Part shown: positions 1 through 19,499 of the stretch, piece after piece
Layout of the letters: every line of letters starts with the position of its first letter
Position numbering within the stretch: position 1 is the stretch's first letter
Source of the DNA: Cyanobacteria bacterium RYN_339
GTDB lineage: Bacteria > Cyanobacteriota > Sericytochromatia > S15B-MN24 > JAQBPE01
Direction: 5' to 3'
Assembly: GCA_028287685.1 (NCBI GenBank)
Contig: JAQBPE010000362.1
Location: 1-37,783, forward strand
DNA length: 37,783 nucleotides
Program-made: the position numbers and the translations under genes
Notes under the pieces: model-generated
What the model was told of the DNA's origin: nothing
The model's input: the letters and a program-made list of their open reading frames with translations, nothing else
Databases searched by the model: none

Positions 1-68
1 GTTGACCGGAAAGCCGACCGACCATCCTAGGGTATGTACCCCAAGACGGCCGAGCTTGGAGTGGCAAG

Positions 69-461
69 ATGAAAATGGCGCGGTATCCCATCTTTGCGGC
101 GATTTGGGCGGTGACCGCTTGCGCGAACACCAGCGATCCCGTGATGTTCCAGCTCGAGCCGCCGGCCCCTTGTCCCGGCCAAAGCGTGAAGGTCAGCACG
201 ACGCAATTGCCGGTGAAGGGCGCCATCTATTTGTGGAACACACCCGGCGACTTCACGCTCGACTTCTGGTCCCAAAACCTGACCCAGGGTGGCTCTCGAA
301 CCCAGGTCTATCACGGCAGCAGCCTTGTGCCGTTCACCGTAACGCTCGATCCAACAACTACCAAGCCGAAGGACCAGGTTGAATTGACCTATACGGTCAG
401 CCTCGATGGCAAGCCGAAGGGGATTGGGACCAAGTCCATCAACGTAGCGGAGTGTAAGTGA
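69..461 (+). CDS. putative secreted/lipoprotein-like hypothetical protein
   Basis: 130-aa ORF with N-terminal hydrophobic stretch ending in a Cys (FAAIWAVTACANTS); no recognised domain. Confidence 0.6.
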   Translation: MKMARYPIFAAIWAVTACANTSDPVMFQLEPPAPCPGQSVKVSTTQLPVKGAIYLWNTPGDFTLDFWSQNLTQGGSRTQVYHGSSLVPFTVTLDPTTTKPKDQVELTYTVSLDGKPKGIGTKSINVAECK

Positions 462-477
462 AGAGCCGTCCGGCCAT

Positions 478-503
478 AAAAAAGGCCACCCCGGAGAGTG
501 GCC
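478..503 (-). terminator. rho-independent terminator of the NHLP precursor gene
   Basis: Minus strand GGCCAC-tctccggg-GTGGCC followed by TTTTTT, just downstream of the stop at 517. Confidence 0.8.
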
Positions 504-516
504 CGCAGAAGAGGGC

Positions 517-1014
517 TTAGAAGAGCCTGCGCCCGAGCTGAACCCCCAGCGACCCTGGCGACCCGTTTCTACCCGTGTTGATCGCCACCCCCCCGGCCCA
601 GCCCGCGGTGCCATAGAAACTGCCGTCGTTGTGGCCGCCCAAGCCGGCGCCGGCGCTCAAGCCGGCCCCGGCGGAACCCGCGTCGCTGTGGTCGTTGCCG
701 CCGCCGAACGTGCCCTTGAAGAAGGACACGGCGCCGGACTTGCTGCCACCGGAGACGGCTTCGAGGTCGCTGTCGGACAGCTCGCCATCGGTGCTGGTCT
801 TGGCCTGGTACGGCAGCACGATCGTGTATTCAGTGGGCGAGGCTTCGACGACCTTGATCACCAGGCCGGGGGGCAGTGGGGCGTTGACAGCGTTCTCGAT
901 AACGGCCTTGGGGTCGGCCAGCAGCAGGGCGCGGAAAGCGGGGTCTTGGAGGGCCGCATTGACGATGATGGTGTTCAGGTCGGCGACCATTTGAGCTTCA
1001 TTAGGACCGGACAT
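517..1014 (-). CDS. NHLP-leader (nitrile hydratase-like leader peptide) RiPP precursor, proteusin-like
   Basis: Leader 'AALQDPAFRALLLADPKAVIENAVNAPLPPGLVIKVVEASPTEYTIVLP...ELSDSDLEAVSGG' matches the NHLP pattern including the double-Gly; RBS AGGAGG upstream; Gly/Ala-rich core of 75 aa without Cys. Confidence 0.85.
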   Translation of the reverse strand: MSGPNEAQMVADLNTIIVNAALQDPAFRALLLADPKAVIENAVNAPLPPGLVIKVVEASPTEYTIVLPYQAKTSTDGELSDSDLEAVSGGSKSGAVSFFKGTFGGGNDHSDAGSAGAGLSAGAGLGGHNDGSFYGTAGWAGGVAINTGRNGSPGSLGVQLGRRLF

Positions 1015-1185
1015 CAGACCTCCTAGGAAAGGGCGAACCTACTTGACGGGCGATGTAACGCATGTCGATAAACGACACTCCGCCAACGCTTCAGTCAACA
1101 ATTACAATGTTCTATACCCGGTCTGCGGGTCGGAAATACGGCCAATTGATGGTCCTGACCGAGTCGTGCCCAGAAACAACCGTCT

Positions 1186-1905
1186 CTATTGAGCTTGGTC
1201 GATGCCGCCGACGAGGTGCATGCGCCATATGTCCCACTCCGACCCCAACCCCGCCTCGATGACGAGGTCCTCCCCACCCACCGGGTGCCGCAACCCCAAT
1301 TGGCACGCGTGCAGCCACAGCCGTTGCAAGCCCAACAGCGCCGCCAGGTCGCGGTTCAGCGGCCCCTTGCCGTGGGTGGAGTCGCCGATGATCGGGTGGG
1401 AGAGGTGCTTCATATGCCGGCGCAGCTGATGGCGACGCCCGGTCAGGGGTTGCAGCTCCACCAGGGCGCAGCGGGTGGTGGGGAACCGACCTTGCGGCAG
1501 GGGCAGCTCGTAGCGCTCGAGCGTCCGGTAGCGGGTCACCGCGTCCTGCATCTCGACGCGCTGGACGCGCATATCGTCGGGCATGCGGCGCAACGGATGG
1601 TCGATCAGGCCCTCGTCGTCCGGCCAGCCGCGCACCACGGCGCGGTAGGTCTTGCTCACGCCTTCACCCGCCTCGAAGACCAGCCCCATCGCGCGGGCCG
1701 TCGCCGCGTCCAGGGCGAACAGCAAGACGCCGCTGGTGCCCTTGTCGAGCCGGTGCGCAGGCCAAACCGGCCGGTCCAGCTGGTCGCGCAGCAGCTGCAA
1801 CGCGAAGCGGGTCTCGCCCGCGTCCAGGCCGGTGCGGTGCACCAACAAGCCCGGGGGCTTGTCTACCGCCACCAGATACGCGTCGCCATACAAAACCGTG
1901 AGCAT
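1186..1905 (-). CDS. truC: tRNA pseudouridine(65) synthase TruC-like (RluA family)
   Basis: MLTVLYGDAYLVAVDKPPGLLVHR, AHRLDKGTSGVLLFAL, LQPLTGRRHQLRRHMKHLSHPIIGDSTHGKG, LQRLWLHACQL resemble TruC. Confidence 0.85.
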   Translation of the reverse strand: MLTVLYGDAYLVAVDKPPGLLVHRTGLDAGETRFALQLLRDQLDRPVWPAHRLDKGTSGVLLFALDAATARAMGLVFEAGEGVSKTYRAVVRGWPDDEGLIDHPLRRMPDDMRVQRVEMQDAVTRYRTLERYELPLPQGRFPTTRCALVELQPLTGRRHQLRRHMKHLSHPIIGDSTHGKGPLNRDLAALLGLQRLWLHACQLGLRHPVGGEDLVIEAGLGSEWDIWRMHLVGGIDQAQ

Positions 1906-1910
1906 GCCGG

Positions 1911-2297
1911 CTATTCCGGGAAATGCTCGCGCATGTGCGCCGCCAGCTGATCGAGCGTCTCTCGATGGGCCGCGCGACTCTTCTTGTTCGCACCTTCGGC
2001 GGTCATCAGCGCGCGAACCCGCGTTTCGAGCCTCTTGCACGCCTTCAACGTGGGCGGGAACTCCGGCGGCGGCGCGGGTTCGTCCCAGCCCGGGAACTTG
2101 GCGTTCAGGATCTCGATCAGCGCCTGTAGCTCGACCTCGGCAGGCGTCTGTAAGGTCTGTTCCTCACCGGTGGCATCTCGCGCGATCACCTTGCGCAGGT
2201 GGGCGACCCTCGACCGGCCCTGGTCGCGATTCTTGGGAACGTGCAAAATCTGGTCTCCGTGGGGTGGGGTCAGGCGGTCGTCGCAGCGCTGCGACAA
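1911..2297 (-). CDS. hypothetical protein in truC operon (true start may be internal)
   Basis: 128-aa ORF between truC and the MBL-fold gene with compact spacing. Confidence 0.5.
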   Translation of the reverse strand: MSQRCDDRLTPPHGDQILHVPKNRDQGRSRVAHLRKVIARDATGEEQTLQTPAEVELQALIEILNAKFPGWDEPAPPPEFPPTLKACKRLETRVRALMTAEGANKKSRAAHRETLDQLAAHMREHFPE

Positions 2298-3100
2298 GCC
2301 TCGAACTCCGTATGATCATGAGAGCATATGATTTGCACGGACGGGGCCGCGTCACGCGCCAAGTCGCGCAACCGGTCCTGATTTGCCAGCCGCGCCTTGC
2401 TGTCGACCTCCGTGAGCCGTTGGAAGAGGTCCAGCCCGAGCGACGTTTGCCGCGTCGGGCCGTGCACCTCGCCATGGGCGAAGTAGGCGTCTCCTGCATG
2501 GAGCAACCAACCCTTTTCGGTTTGCACCGCGACGCCGCAGTGACCGCGGGAATGCCCATGCAGAGGCACCAGCAGAATGTCCGACCCAATCGTTTGGACC
2601 GCTTCGAAACCCTGCCAGCGTTCGCCTTGCACCGTGTGCCGCACCCAGTTCGGGCCGTGCGCCCACATCGCCTGCTGGTAACGGTGGCTCTCGAAGGGCG
2701 AGGACGGGGCCATGGCAGCCTCGTGCTCGCTCTCGAAGACATGGACCGCGGCGCGCGGGAAGTCTGCGATGCCGCCGGCATGGTCCAGGTCCAGATGCGT
2801 CAAGACGATGTGCCGTACGTCGTCGACGTTGTAGCCCAGCCGCTCGATCTGGCGGCGCGCGGTCTCTTCGGGGTCCAAGCGGGGCCGCGTCATCAGCAGG
2901 AACGGCGCGCCCAGGAGCTTGTCAGGCGCCTGAATGGCGTCCAAGCCAATCCCCGTATCCACCAAGACCAACCCGTCGTGGGACTCGATCAACAGGCAAT
3001 GACAGATCAGGCGGCCAGCACTGAAAATCCCGCCTGTCCCGTGGACGAACCGCTCGCCGGTCGGGCACATGGTGGCACAGTTGAGGTGATGGATGCGCAA
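2270..3100 (-). CDS. MBL-fold metallohydrolase, N-acyl homoserine lactonase-like
   Basis: HLDLDHAGG zinc motif, GHSRGHCG, LLHAGDAYF, CSHDHTEFE; layout resembles AHL-lactonase-like MBL proteins. Confidence 0.75.
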   Translation of the reverse strand: MRIHHLNCATMCPTGERFVHGTGGIFSAGRLICHCLLIESHDGLVLVDTGIGLDAIQAPDKLLGAPFLLMTRPRLDPEETARRQIERLGYNVDDVRHIVLTHLDLDHAGGIADFPRAAVHVFESEHEAAMAPSSPFESHRYQQAMWAHGPNWVRHTVQGERWQGFEAVQTIGSDILLVPLHGHSRGHCGVAVQTEKGWLLHAGDAYFAHGEVHGPTRQTSLGLDLFQRLTEVDSKARLANQDRLRDLARDAAPSVQIICSHDHTEFEACRSAATTA

Positions 3101-3316
3101 GGGTCACTCTTCCGGGGCAGACCGATGAGGGGGTAGAAGCGCCGTACCCAGAACGTCGGTCACCTTTGCAAACGCGATGGGTTAACCCACCTTCACCAAC
3201 ACTTGAGCGATTCTTAAGTCGATGACCGCCCGTTGTCAGCGGCTGGTTAGAGCCCCGGCCGAAGAGAGATCGTGTAGCCACCCAGCCGGTGGCAACGCAT
3301 CGCAAAGGAGCATCGC

Positions 3317-3991
3317 ATGAACCCCTTCAGCCTCCTCGGCCGTTCCCTGGCCTCCATCGTTCATCTGGCGGGCCGCCGCGAGGCGGGTGCCGTGGTTGGC
3401 AAGGAAGCCTGCGAGGGCGTCGCGCGGCAAGCGGGCGAAGTCCTGGGCCGCGACACCGTGATGACCAGCGAGCAGGTTCTGGTGGATCGCCTGGTGAAGC
3501 AACTGGATCGCGAAACGAGCTCGGTGCCCGGCAACCGTGCCGTGATGAGGTACCGCGGCGCCCGGAGCTCGCTGAACACGATGTTGGAGAGCGGCACGCT
3601 CACGCGCCAGCAGTTCCAGGCGGTCAACGACCGGCTGACGACCAGCGCCGTCGAACGCGAGCTCGGGGAACGGGCGGGCATGGAGCTGCCGATCCGGCTG
3701 CGCTGGCTCGACCTCCTGAAGGAAGAGTCCACCATGTCCCCGACGCTCTACGCGGCCACGCGCAAGCGTTCCCAGGATGCGGCGGCGGCGGAGCTGATGG
3801 CGATGAAGTTCCCGGACTGGCGGACCGCCAAGTACACCTTCGATCGTTTCGCGGCCGTGGCGGACCTGTCGGCCGAGGCGAAGGCCTCGATGCAGCAGGA
3901 GTTGCTGGTCAAGGCCCTGGCCGATGCGGAGAAGCAAGGCCGTCAGCTCGATTTGGTGGTGCCGGGCCCGGACAGCGGAAGCATCGGCTAA
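3317..3991 (+). CDS. hypothetical protein
   Basis: 224-aa ORF with AAAGGAG upstream of the ATG. Confidence 0.6.
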   Translation: MNPFSLLGRSLASIVHLAGRREAGAVVGKEACEGVARQAGEVLGRDTVMTSEQVLVDRLVKQLDRETSSVPGNRAVMRYRGARSSLNTMLESGTLTRQQFQAVNDRLTTSAVERELGERAGMELPIRLRWLDLLKEESTMSPTLYAATRKRSQDAAAAELMAMKFPDWRTAKYTFDRFAAVADLSAEAKASMQQELLVKALADAEKQGRQLDLVVPGPDSGSIG

Positions 3992-13534: not shown

Positions 13535-14682
13535 CAGCGCGACCCCGGTAGGGAGGCTCGCCAGCCCTTACGCAGCACCCGGAGCGCGTTGCCCGCCATG
13601 ATCGCTTCCGCGTCCACGGTCCCATATCGGGCCACCAGTTGCTCGCCCAGGCGCGCGTAGTCGCTCATCCGCCGGTACCCGGGCAACCCGCGCGTGAACC
13701 CATCCATATCCGACCCGATCGCCGCATACCGGTGGCTCCCCGTCACGGCCGCGATCCGATCGATGTGGCGGCACAACAACCCGAAGCCGCGGTCGGCCGC
13801 GGGCAGGCCATTCCCCAACATATGCTCGCACAGGATCACCCCCAACACGCCGTCCCGCGCGGCGACCTGGGCGATCGTCTCGTCGCTCAGGCAGCGCTCC
13901 CGGTCCCCGAAGCGGCAGGCCATGTGCGAGGCGATCACGGGCACGCTTTTCTCCGCATCGAGTGCGTCCAAGAGGGCGAACGTGTCGGCGATCGCCCGCT
14001 CGCTCATGTGGACGATGTCCACCAGAACGCCATTGCCCACCATCGCCATGACCAGGTGCCGCCCCAGCTCCGACAGCCCTATGTCCGGCTGCGGGAACAA
14101 CCGGTGGAACAAATCATCCGGGATGTAGGGGATGGCCCGCGACACCGTAGCGAGGCCCCGCCAGAAGAAGTGCGCGGGACTCACGTAGGCCAGCCCCCGC
14201 CCGGCGAGGGTCGCCACGTTCGCCGTAATCGCGTCCGGCGTTCCGCCCAGGTGGAAGCCGCCTTCGATCGCGTGGAGGAAGGCCACGCGCCCCTCGGCGA
14301 TCGCCCCATCAAGGTCCGCCACGTTGCGACACACCCGCGCGGTCTCGGGATGCCGCCGGGCCAGGTGCCGCTCCACGGCCTCCAGTTGAGCGAGCAAGCG
14401 CGGGAAGTACGCGTCGTCCGGTGGTGCCCCGTAGCCGTGGGACAGGTCGAACTCGTCGAGGGGCGAATACAGGACGGAGAGCACGACCCCCACCCCGCCT
14501 TCCCGCATGGCCGACACCGTCGCCCCGGGCCGGGACGTGAAGGTCTCGTAGTTGCCAATCCGGCAGGCCAATTCGAGCAGCGCGGCATGGGCGTGGTCGC
14601 CGGGGTGGGCGGTCTCCACGAGCGCCCGGCGGAAGTCTCCCATCAGGTGCATGGGGTAATGCACGTGAAGGTCTACGAACAT
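13534..14682 (-). CDS. membrane dipeptidase-like, peptidase family M19
   Basis: 'FVDLHVHYPMHLM', 'AFLHAIEGGFHLGG', 'VDIVHMSERAIADT', 'PVIASHMACR', 'AIGSDMDGFTRGLPG'. Confidence 0.85.
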   Translation of the reverse strand: MFVDLHVHYPMHLMGDFRRALVETAHPGDHAHAALLELACRIGNYETFTSRPGATVSAMREGGVGVVLSVLYSPLDEFDLSHGYGAPPDDAYFPRLLAQLEAVERHLARRHPETARVCRNVADLDGAIAEGRVAFLHAIEGGFHLGGTPDAITANVATLAGRGLAYVSPAHFFWRGLATVSRAIPYIPDDLFHRLFPQPDIGLSELGRHLVMAMVGNGVLVDIVHMSERAIADTFALLDALDAEKSVPVIASHMACRFGDRERCLSDETIAQVAARDGVLGVILCEHMLGNGLPAADRGFGLLCRHIDRIAAVTGSHRYAAIGSDMDGFTRGLPGYRRMSDYARLGEQLVARYGTVDAEAIMAGNALRVLRKGWRASLPGSR

Positions 14683-14795
14683 GGCAACTCCTCCGACGTC
14701 GACGCGTTTCCACGCTACCACAAGATAACCAAGCTAGCGTTCACCGGGTAAGATGTCGTCGCGGCCCAACATTTTGCCACGCCCAGGAGGTCCCC

Positions 14796-15209
14796 ATGTC
14801 ACGCCCATTCGCCACCTGTCTCGTCGTCCTGGGCTTGCTTGCGGCGGCGCCCGCCTGGGCCCGCGGCGAGGCGACCCCGCTGAAGTTCGCGCCCGGCGCC
14901 TCGAGCGCCTCGGTCCAAGGCGGGGCGCCGCAAGGCCTGCACGCGCATTACACCCTGGGGGCACGCAAGGGCCAGAAGATGAAGCTCCGCGTAAGCTCCA
15001 CGGGCAACAACGCCGGTATCGCGATCTTCCTGCCCGGATGGACGTTCGATAAGGACGGTTACCCCAGCGGCAAGATGCTCGCCGGCGCCGGCGAAAAAGA
15101 GGACGTGTCCACCTGGAACGGCACCTTGCCGGCCTCCGGGACCTACCTGGTCGACATCGGCGGCAGGCATGGCGGGACCGACTACAAGCTGACGGTCGAG
15201 ATCAAGTAG
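14796..15209 (+). CDS. secreted protein, PPC-like domain
   Basis: Signal peptide; 'AHYTLGARKGQKMKLRVSS...WNGTLPASGTYLVDIGGRHGGTDYKLTVEI'. Confidence 0.65.
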   Translation: MSRPFATCLVVLGLLAAAPAWARGEATPLKFAPGASSASVQGGAPQGLHAHYTLGARKGQKMKLRVSSTGNNAGIAIFLPGWTFDKDGYPSGKMLAGAGEKEDVSTWNGTLPASGTYLVDIGGRHGGTDYKLTVEIK

Positions 15210-15239
15210 AGGCAACGGGGCCGTTGCCAGGAGCACCCC

Positions 15240-16115
15240 ATGCTGCGTAGATTGGCCACCCTGGTCCTGACGATGGCCGTGCAGGTCTCGATCGTGGCGG
15301 CCCTGGCCACGCGCACGGTCATGGCCAACGACCTGAAGATCGCCTATTCGGAGGCGGGCGCGGGCACCCCGTTGGTCTTCATCCACGGCTTCCCGCTGAA
15401 CCGGCACCTGTGGGACGCGCAGGTCCAGGACCTGGCCGCGGACCACCGCGTCATCGCCATCGACTTGCCGGGCTTCGGCGACAGCCAGGCCCGTGGCGGC
15501 TCCGTGACCATGGACGTGTTGGCCGCGGACGTCCATGCGGTGCTCCAGCAGCTCCGGGTCGAACGGCCGGTCATCATCGGGCACTCGATGGGCGGGTTCG
15601 TGTCGCTGGCTTACGCCGAACGCTACCCCCAGGACCTGCGCGGCCTGGTGTTGGTCTCGACCAATGCGGAGGCCTCCTCGGAGAAACGGGCCGTCGCGCA
15701 TCGGGCGCTCGCCGAGCAGGTGCGCGAGGTGGGTGCGGCGCCGGTCATCGACGCGTTCGCGCCGCTTATGGGGCCCGCCGGCGCTCTCGATCCCGCGCTC
15801 GACCTCCGGGCCCGCGCGCTCATGGCGACCGCCAGCCGCGATGGGCTGGCCAGCTGCCTGGTCGGCATGTCGCAGCGGCCCGAGCGGCTCAAGTGGCTGT
15901 CAACGTCGACGATCCCGGCGCTTGTGCTGACCGGGACGGCGGATCAAACGATCCCGATGGCTGCCTCGCAGCGGATGGCGGCCGTGATGTCGAACGCGAA
16001 GCTTGTCGCGCTGGAAGGTGGAGGGCACCTGCTCCCGCTCGAGCGCCCGGCCCGCTTGACTGCGGAAATCCGGCAGTTCGCTCGGACGTGCCCCCCCACG
16101 GGTGGCGCCGAATGA
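15240..16115 (+). CDS. alpha/beta hydrolase
   Basis: 'TPLVFIHGFPLNRHLWDAQVQDLA', GHSMGG nucleophile elbow, 'IPALVLTGTADQTIP'. Confidence 0.9.
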   Translation: MLRRLATLVLTMAVQVSIVAALATRTVMANDLKIAYSEAGAGTPLVFIHGFPLNRHLWDAQVQDLAADHRVIAIDLPGFGDSQARGGSVTMDVLAADVHAVLQQLRVERPVIIGHSMGGFVSLAYAERYPQDLRGLVLVSTNAEASSEKRAVAHRALAEQVREVGAAPVIDAFAPLMGPAGALDPALDLRARALMATASRDGLASCLVGMSQRPERLKWLSTSTIPALVLTGTADQTIPMAASQRMAAVMSNAKLVALEGGGHLLPLERPARLTAEIRQFARTCPPTGGAE

Positions 16116-16230: not shown

Positions 16231-17370
16231 ATGCTCAAGCGCGCCCTGTTCCTCGCGGCCCTGTTGGCCGCCCCCTCCGCCCACGCCGCCCCTGCCGGCA
16301 CCGTCTTCCTGGCCGGCGGCCACGTCATGGACCAGGACGCCGACCTCTGGAAGGCGTTCATCGGCCGGGCCAGCTCCCCCACCATCGCGGTCTTCGGCAG
16401 CGCCCGCGAGTCCCTGAAGGTGGCCCGCGGGGCTTACGAGCAGGATACCCCCGGCATCTGGTGCTACCAGCATGTGCTGAAGCACTACGGCGCCAAGCCC
16501 CGCTTCGTGCCCATCGCCATCGACAATTACCGCCAGGCGGCGCATGACCCGGCCAACTTGAAGTTGGTGGAGCAGGCCGGCGGCGTGTGGTTCGGCGGCG
16601 GCGCCCAGGACTTGCACGCGCGGTGCCTGCTGGAAGATGACGGTCGCGACACGCCGCTGATGTCCGCCGTGCGCAAAGTTTACCAGCGTGGCGGCGTGGT
16701 GGGCGGCACCAGCGCCGGCGCGGCGGTGATGGACAAGCTGACCTATGGCGACGGCGAGAGCGCGGACTACCTGCTGGCCAACCGGTTGGTGAAGCGTCCG
16801 CTGACGGCCTTCGGCAAGGCGGACACGGCCATGGGGGATGGCAAGACCGGCGGCTACACCACGGGCTTCGGCTTCACGTCGGGCATCGATGCGGCCGTGG
16901 ACACACACGTGGACGCCCGCGGCCGCTATGGCCGCGTGTTGGTGGCCATGGGCCAGCTGGACTACCACTTCGGCATCGCGCTGGCGGAGAACACGGCCCT
17001 GGCGGTGCAGGGACAGCGTGGCGTGGCATTCGGTGCGGGCAGCGTGGTGGTCTTCGACGGGCGCCAGGCCGAGATCGCCAAGGCCGGGCGCTTCACGGCG
17101 CGCGACGTGGGCGCCAGCGTCTTGCGCGCCCATGATGCCTATGACTTCACCACCGGCGAAGCCACGCTCGGCCGCCGCCCCTCGCCCGGCCCGCTGCCCA
17201 CCGCGCCCGCCAACCTACTGAATCGCGACGCCTTGCCCCGCGTGATCGAAGCCTTCCAGGCCAGCGGGGCCCGCGAGCTGCGCTGCCCGGCGCCGGCCGC
17301 GAAGCTCGTCTTCACCCTGCGCCGCGGCTACACCACCCTGCTCGATGTGACCCCCCTGGAGGCCCCGTGA
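16231..17370 (+). CDS. secreted cyanophycinase-like protein (peptidase S51 family)
   Basis: Signal peptide; 'GGVWFGGGAQD', 'GGVVGGTSAGAAVM', 'DTHVDARGRYGRVLVAM'. Confidence 0.85.
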   Translation: MLKRALFLAALLAAPSAHAAPAGTVFLAGGHVMDQDADLWKAFIGRASSPTIAVFGSARESLKVARGAYEQDTPGIWCYQHVLKHYGAKPRFVPIAIDNYRQAAHDPANLKLVEQAGGVWFGGGAQDLHARCLLEDDGRDTPLMSAVRKVYQRGGVVGGTSAGAAVMDKLTYGDGESADYLLANRLVKRPLTAFGKADTAMGDGKTGGYTTGFGFTSGIDAAVDTHVDARGRYGRVLVAMGQLDYHFGIALAENTALAVQGQRGVAFGAGSVVVFDGRQAEIAKAGRFTARDVGASVLRAHDAYDFTTGEATLGRRPSPGPLPTAPANLLNRDALPRVIEAFQASGARELRCPAPAAKLVFTLRRGYTTLLDVTPLEAP

Positions 17371-18668: not shown

Positions 18669-19499
18669 ATGGACCCTCGGGTGGAGCAACTGGACGCGCG
18701 TGAAATCGACGGCATCGTCGACCTCTCGCAATCCGTAGGGTGGGACTACGCGCCGGCGGAGATCGCCACGGCGATGGCGGCCGGAACGATGGTAGGCGTC
18801 CGGGACAGTGCCGGCGGCCTACTCGCCTGCGCCGGGATCTTCCTCTATCCTAGCCTGGCGTCGCTCGGCCTGGTGATCGTGCGGCCGGAGGCCCAGGGGC
18901 GCGGGCTCGGCCGTCACGTGACGGCAGCGTGCGTCGAGCTGGCAGGCGATCGCCCGGTGGTCCTTGCCGCGACGGAGGCCGGGCGGCCTCTCTACGAGCG
19001 GCTCGGGTTCCACACGGTAGGGACGCTGCACAAGATGTTCGCGGCGACGTGGACGCCCATCGATCAATCAGTGACGGTGGCCGACGGGCTGCCCGACCAG
19101 GTGCAGACCATCGACTTGGATGCCGCCGCGCTCGGCACGTCCCGCGCGGCCTTCCTCGCTGCACGTATCGCCCAGGCCTGCGACCACGTCAGCGTCCGCG
19201 ACGGCGCGGGCGAGACGGTGGGGTTCGCGCTGGCCGTGCAGGCGCCGGAGGTGCGGGTCATCGGGCCCGTGGTCTCGCAGGACGCGGGGACTGCCTTGGC
19301 GCTCGTGGATGCGCTGGCGAGGCGGCATGGGGGGCGTCTGCGGATCGACGTGCCATCGGAACATAACGGCCTCGTCGAAGCGCTGCAGGCGCGCGGCTTC
19401 GTGCTTGACCGGATCGTGCCCGTGATGGCGCTGCGGCCCGAGCGGCTGCCGCAAGGCAATGGAACGCGCTTTGCCATCGCGGCGCAAGCCTTCGGCTGA
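18669..19499 (+). CDS. GNAT family N-acetyltransferase
   Basis: 'LGLVIVRPEAQGRGLGRHVTAACVELA...ATEAGRPLYERLGFHTVGTL'. Confidence 0.85.
   Translation: MDPRVEQLDAREIDGIVDLSQSVGWDYAPAEIATAMAAGTMVGVRDSAGGLLACAGIFLYPSLASLGLVIVRPEAQGRGLGRHVTAACVELAGDRPVVLAATEAGRPLYERLGFHTVGTLHKMFAATWTPIDQSVTVADGLPDQVQTIDLDAAALGTSRAAFLAARIAQACDHVSVRDGAGETVGFALAVQAPEVRVIGPVVSQDAGTALALVDALARRHGGRLRIDVPSEHNGLVEALQARGFVLDRIVPVMALRPERLPQGNGTRFAIAAQAFG

What the first reader, a model, noticed from the sequence alone, without database searches (positions are those of the whole stretch)
517..1014. Orphan proteusin-like NHLP RiPP precursor with Cys-free Gly/Ala-rich core
A 90-aa NHLP-type leader ends in LSDSDLEAVSGG. The 75-aa core is SKSGAVSFFKGTFGGGNDHSDAGSAGAGLSAGAGLGGHNDGSFYGTAGWAGGVAINTGRNGSPGSLGVQLGRRLF. 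It has 22 Gly and no Cys, so lanthionine or sactipeptide chemistry is not possible on this peptide. The G/A/N/S composition is loosely reminiscent of polytheonamide-type proteusin cores. No radical SAM, LanM, cyclodehydratase or C39 peptidase is visible in the window, so maturation would act in trans or beyond the left edge, or the peptide has another role.
Basis: partly seen in the sequence, partly recalled or inferred. Interest (0 to 1): 0.75.

Follow-up and report, generated by a model that had tools for sequence, protein, structure and literature searches.

The report
Stand-alone precursor for a secreted peptide
A bacterium related to cyanobacteria carries, on its own in the genome, the gene for a small peptide with a standard removable "address tag"; the only matching processing-and-export machinery found in that genome lies on another contig and probably cuts it, and perhaps adds a fatty acid, which makes it a new but ordinary-looking member of a known natural-product family.

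Summary
Window 517-1014(-) encodes a 165-aa protein whose first 90 residues pass the curated NHLP-leader model (54.9 bits, cut-off 50.9). It ends in VSGG and is followed by a 75-aa core with 22 Gly and no Cys. The gene has its own Shine-Dalgarno and terminator and is locally an orphan. The genome (a non-photosynthetic cyanobacterial relative) does hold machinery. Contig C149 carries a second NHLP precursor beside a LanM, a complete NHLM export set (the only C39 peptidase-ABC found), a tandem GNAT and KS/KR/ACP genes. Contig C279 carries a third precursor beside a second tandem GNAT. No YcaO was found. The window core starts SKSGAVSFFKG and the C149 core SKAGARSFFNG (8/11 identical, 0 of 200,000 shuffles); beyond that the cores are unrelated. 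In this class of 18 genomes, NHLP precursors and this GNAT family occur in the same three genomes. Best reading: an unlinked proteusin precursor cleaved and exported in trans by the C149 system and possibly fatty-acylated on core Lys2 by a selidamide-type GNAT. The polytheonamide comparison has no support. Unlinked and Cys-free NHLPs were already described in 2010, so this is a new member of a known kind.

The parts
517..1014 (-). NHLP (proteusin-type) precursor gene, 165 aa
   Evidence: TIGR03793 above cut-off; AGGAGG at 1019-1024; coding GC3 pattern in leader and core
745..1014 (-). NHLP leader, residues 1-90, ending in Gly-Gly
   Evidence: residues 12-90 matched; PDB proteusin precursors 8tb1/9cjx are the best sequence and fold matches
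520..744 (-). Predicted core peptide, residues 91-165, 75 aa, 22 Gly, no Cys
   Evidence: low pLDDT; no homologue of the whole core in own genome or class
712..744 (-). Core-proximal block SKSGAVSFFKG shared with the C149 precursor (SKAGARSFFNG); candidate acylation site is core Lys2 (codon 739-741)
   Evidence: 8 of 11 identical, 0 of 200,000 shuffles; DNA identity of 78% runs from the DGELSD motif through this block and stops
1019..1024 (-). Shine-Dalgarno sequence AGGAGG
   Evidence: read directly
478..504 (-). Intrinsic terminator immediately after the stop codon; the gene is probably monocistronic
   Evidence: stem 504-483 plus T run; 0.8 such sites expected by chance in the scanned stretch, so the support is mainly its position
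69..461 (+). Convergent gene for a small, probably exported protein with no family match; separates the precursor from the contig end
1186..1908 (-). Upstream neighbour, RNA pseudouridine synthase; not a maturase
   Evidence: PF00849

Best explanation
The gene encodes an unlinked proteusin-type (NHLP) precursor that works with a system encoded elsewhere in the same genome. SHOWN by sequence: NHLP leader with Gly-Gly site; a paralogous precursor on C149 beside LanM, a complete NHLM exporter and a tandem GNAT; an 11-residue block at the start of the core shared with that paralogue only. INFERRED: the leader docks on the same enzymes; the C39 domain of the C149 transporter (the only C39-ABC found) cuts after Gly90 and exports the 75-aa core; a tandem GNAT, of C149 or C279, adds a fatty acyl group to core Lys2, as NpuN does to Lys1 of nostolysamide; LanM may dehydrate some Ser/Thr but cannot make rings within this peptide. 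The exported product would be a Gly-rich, possibly lipidated peptide acting outside the cell. Step confidences: NHLP precursor 0.96; cleavage and export in trans by the C149 NHLM system 0.7; GNAT acylation of Lys2 0.4; LanM dehydration 0.25.
For: Leader family and fold. Three NHLP precursors in the genome, on C149, C272 and C279. C149 neighbours: TIGR03897 LanM, TIGR03796 C39-ABC, TIGR03797 ABC2, TIGR03794 HlyD, all above cut-off; the only LanM and the only C39-ABC found. GNAT next to the C149 and C279 precursors, with a predicted tandem-GNAT fold (mean pLDDT 90.6; best PDB matches are tandem GNATs). Among the 17 other genomes of the class, NHLP precursors and this GNAT family occur in the same two, G003 and G007; in G007 the GNAT directly follows the precursor and the NHLM exporter lies close by, and in G003:C8 precursor, C39-ABC and GNAT share one stretch. 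Cores of the four GNAT-linked precursors have Lys at position 1, 1, 2 or 3; the window core has it at 2. Shared SK-GA-SFF-G block. Tetranucleotide usage of C149 and C279 fits the window (r 0.85-0.93, against 0.67-0.85 for contigs of other genomes). Precedent for GNAT acylation of a core Lys and for GNAT clusters with NHLP leaders: PMC13060382.
Against: No maturase or transporter was seen near the gene. The genome is a draft with 6.7% estimated contamination. A Lys in the first three core positions has roughly an 8% chance with 2 Lys in 75 residues, so this is weak alone; one further NHLP of the class, on G003:C59, has no early Lys. The shared block may only reflect common ancestry. The core is far longer (75 aa) than the average NHLP core beside LanM (26 aa, PMC2887384). 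No expression or mass-spectrometry data.
Confidence: 0.5

Rival explanations
1. An unmodified, bacteriocin-like exported peptide: the NHLP leader serves only for C39 cleavage and export, and the Gly-rich core acts as made, possibly as partner of the C149 peptide.
For: Gly-Gly site and one NHLM exporter in the genome; no enzyme next to the gene; core near-neutral in hydropathy, charge +2, with seven GxxxG motifs; the leader end of NHLPs resembles that of unmodified class II bacteriocins (PMC2887384).
Against: The only core similarity found is to a peptide encoded beside LanM and GNAT; GxxxG is expected often in a core with 29% Gly.
Confidence: 0.25
2. LanM-only substrate: C149 LanM dehydrates Ser/Thr and leaves Dha/Dhb, or joins the core to the Cys of the C149 peptide.
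For: One LanM with CHG and CGN motifs of its LanC domain; Cys-free NHLPs beside LanM are known and presumed dehydrated (PMC2887384); 9 Ser and 3 Thr in the core.
Against: LanM action on an unlinked precursor is untested; the fetched C279, G003 and G007 precursor stretches carry no LanM detectable with this one.
Confidence: 0.12
3. A relic: a duplicated C149-type precursor whose distal core has decayed and is no longer used.
For: Similarity to the C149 gene stops sharply after the 11th core residue, and no homologue of the distal core was found.
Against: The core keeps the coding signature (GC3 0.91) with no frameshift trace in the other frames; SD and terminator are intact; hypervariable cores after Gly-Gly are the rule in this family (PMC2887384).
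Confidence: 0.1

Closest known systems
NHLP (TIGR03793) precursor family / proteusins (Haft 2010, PMC2887384)
   Same: Nitrile-hydratase-like leader, Gly-Gly site, hypervariable core, NHLM exporter in the genome, encoded away from its machinery
   Different: Core of 75 aa is long and lacks Cys; no dedicated cluster seen
Selidamides (phaeornamide, kamptornamide, nostolysamides; PMC9505594, PMC13060382)
   Same: The genome pairs NHLP precursors with tandem GNATs, LanM and NHLM exporter; Lys close to the cleavage site as in NpuA Lys1
   Different: The window precursor has no GNAT beside it; no Cys, so no ring; acylation untested; C149 has KS/KR/ACP genes, not mentioned for the clusters in the papers I read; NpuA itself has a Nif11 leader
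Prochlorosins (ProcA/ProcM; PMC10783134)
   Same: One set of enzymes serving conserved leaders with divergent cores
   Different: Nif11 leaders; cores with conserved Cys; many precursors, against three here
Polytheonamide-type proteusins
   Same: NHLP leader only
   Different: No PoyD-type match found; core similarity is compositional only
Class II bacteriocins with double-glycine leader
   Same: Gly-Gly leader end, C39-ABC export, Gly-rich unmodified-looking core
   Different: 90-aa NHLP leader instead of about 24 aa

Membership tests
NHLP leader family (TIGR03793) | Leader scores above the curated cut-off | tested here: met
   54.9 against 50.9 bits
NHLP leader family (TIGR03793) | Gly-Gly site ending family similarity, then a hypervariable core | tested here: met
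   VSGG at 87-90; leader aligns with seven others, cores do not; only the 11-residue block is shared with one paralogue
Proteusin | Precursor with NHLP-type leader and leader fold | tested here: met
   Best fold and sequence matches are proteusin precursors 8tb1 and 9cjx
Proteusin | Core actually post-translationally modified | not testable with these tools
   Needs expression and mass spectrometry
Proteusin | Maturases clustered with the precursor (usual, not required: PMC2887384) | tested here: inconclusive
   None seen near the gene, but the contig ends 516 bases beyond the stop codon; machinery is on C149 and C279
Selidamide | Tandem GNAT encoded with the precursor | tested here: not met
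   GNATs sit beside the C149 and C279 precursors, not beside the window precursor; it could act in trans
Selidamide | Fatty acyl group on a Lys or (hydroxy)ornithine side chain | not testable with these tools
   Candidate is core Lys2
Class II lanthipeptide | Cys in the core for (methyl)lanthionine rings | tested here: not met
   0 Cys in core
Polytheonamide-type proteusin | PoyD-type radical SAM epimerase | tested here: inconclusive
   No match, but the control genomes gave none either
TOMM (azoline-containing) | YcaO cyclodehydratase | tested here: not met
   No match in the genome with working controls; the genome is about 95% complete

The most novel reading that the evidence does not exclude
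A ring-free selidamide: a lipopeptide made from an unlinked NHLP precursor in a non-photosynthetic relative of cyanobacteria, where a short core-proximal tag (SK-GA-SFF-G) recruits one GNAT/export machine, with its own KS/KR/ACP acyl supply, to otherwise unrelated cores.
Probability: 0.25. Interest if true: 0.55.

Novelty: new member of a known kind. Interest (0 to 1): 0.35.

Why it matters
If matured in trans, this genome would hold a small dispersed set of substrates for one lipidating export system, in a lineage for which my one literature search turned up no report of such a system. The shared block at the start of two otherwise unrelated cores gives a directly testable idea of what a selidamide-type GNAT recognises. 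As it stands it extends, and does not change, what was known of NHLP precursors.

Tried and rejected
Orthologue of the core: none in the own genome or the 17 other genomes of the class, GTDB contigs or viral contigs; the three-paralogue alignment found only leader-level relatives in GTDB contigs, and plasmids gave leader-level hits only. Frameshift relic: the other frames show no similarity to the C149 core, and GC3 supports the annotated frame. Binning artefact for C149/C279: composition agrees with the window, though this does not exclude a close relative. Conserved insertion site: the three relatives compared that carry the pseudouridine synthase share none of 13 other window genes around it. 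The window's own tandem GNAT at 18669-19499 as maturase: belongs to PF18014 and is unrelated to the NHLP-linked GNATs by BLASTP. Weak FapA hits of the core are far below cut-off. The sigma-70 promoter scan found none.

Full report
1. Observation. The ORF at 517-1014(-) is as described: 165 aa, 90-aa leader ending LSDSDLEAVSGG, 75-aa core with 22 Gly and no Cys. It passes the curated NHLP-leader model TIGR03793 at 54.9 bits (cut-off 50.9, E=5.7e-15). AGGAGG precedes the ATG by four bases, an intrinsic terminator follows the stop, and third-position GC is high in both leader (0.80) and core (0.91). The closest solved proteins by sequence are two proteusin precursors, 8tb1 and 9cjx. The AlphaFold model (8 sequences) has a moderately confident leader (block pLDDT 50-88) and a disordered core (33-44); its two best PDB matches are again 8tb1 and 9cjx (E about 0.01, prob 0.99).

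2. Surroundings. The window is the complete contig C272 of a 6.99-Mb, 506-contig draft genome (95.4% complete, 6.7% contaminated). Left of the gene lie a convergent gene for a small protein and the contig end; right lie a pseudouridine synthase, an MBL-fold protein, a CAP-domain protein and a LysR regulator. No maturase or exporter was seen nearby.

3. The rest of the genome. Three NHLP precursors are found: C272 (window), C149 and C279. C149 (13 kb) carries, in order, a KS-like protein, an SDR/KR, an ACP, an unknown ORF, a GNAT, the precursor, LanM, NHLM ABC2, NHLM C39-ABC and NHLM HlyD. LanM, C39-ABC, ABC2 and HlyD all pass their NCBIfam cut-offs. This is the only LanM and, by score, the only strong C39 hit (114.6 bits; the other six are 22-35 bits in shorter frames). 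C279 carries the third precursor directly before a tandem GNAT. YcaO is absent with working controls; PoyD gave nothing but neither did its controls. C149 and C279 match the window in tetranucleotide usage (r 0.85-0.93) better than most contigs of related genomes do (0.67-0.85).

4. The shared block. The window core begins SKSGAVSFFKG and the C149 core SKAGARSFFNG: 8 of 11 identical, never reached in 200,000 shuffles, while the rest of the cores is unrelated (shuffle P = 0.57). At DNA level 78% identity runs from the DGELSD motif through this block and stops. The conserved unit is therefore leader plus 11 core residues. Either this is a recognition element for shared enzymes or it is inherited and not yet diverged; I favour the former moderately.

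5. Comparative distribution. In the 18 genomes held of this class, only G000, G003 and G007 have NHLP precursors, and only these three have the C279-type GNAT. In G007 precursor and GNAT are neighbours, with the NHLM HlyD/C39-ABC/ABC set close by; in G003:C8 precursor, C39-ABC and GNAT lie within about 10 kb (NHLM identity of the G007 C39-ABC and HlyD). A second G003 precursor, on C59, lies at a contig end and has no early Lys. The GNAT model is confident (mean pLDDT 90.6) and its best PDB matches are tandem GNATs. The photosystem reaction-centre family is absent from the genomes of this class and present in ten other members of the phylum, so the organism is a non-photosynthetic relative of cyanobacteria; the name Sericytochromatia is my inference and was not established.

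6. Mechanism. GNATs of this sort fatty-acylate a core side chain in selidamides; in nostolysamide NpuN acylates Lys1, and related GNAT clusters carry NHLP or Nif11 precursors and do not always have a lanthionine synthetase (PMC13060382). The window core has Lys at position 2, and the four GNAT-linked precursors of the class have Lys at positions 1 to 3. I therefore propose cleavage and export by the C149 NHLM system (0.7) and, less surely, acylation at Lys2 (0.4). Cys-free NHLPs and precursors away from their machinery were described in the founding paper (PMC2887384), so neither feature is new.

7. Verdict. New member of a known kind, interest 0.35.

Noticed in passing
L004 (G000:C149) 3-3931: A KS-like protein, SDR/KR, ACP and a 227-aa ORF without Pfam match precede the GNAT and NHLP precursor of a LanM cluster, suggesting a dedicated acyl-chain supply.
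   Followed up: partly
L005 (G000:C279) 14130-15398: Third NHLP precursor directly before a tandem GNAT, with no LanM detected in the stretch; core AGKSQFPGQPGFGLG...
   Followed up: partly
window 18669-19499: Another tandem GNAT (PF18014), unrelated by BLASTP to the NHLP-linked GNATs.
   Followed up: yes
window 1186-1908: Pseudouridine synthase 81% identical to one in G003 (another family) while the best match in G001 (same family) is about 38%; lateral transfer or bin contamination.
   Followed up: partly
L034 (G003:C59) 16463-16828: A second locally orphan NHLP precursor, at a contig end, with C-terminal KKKK and no early Lys in the core.
   Followed up: no
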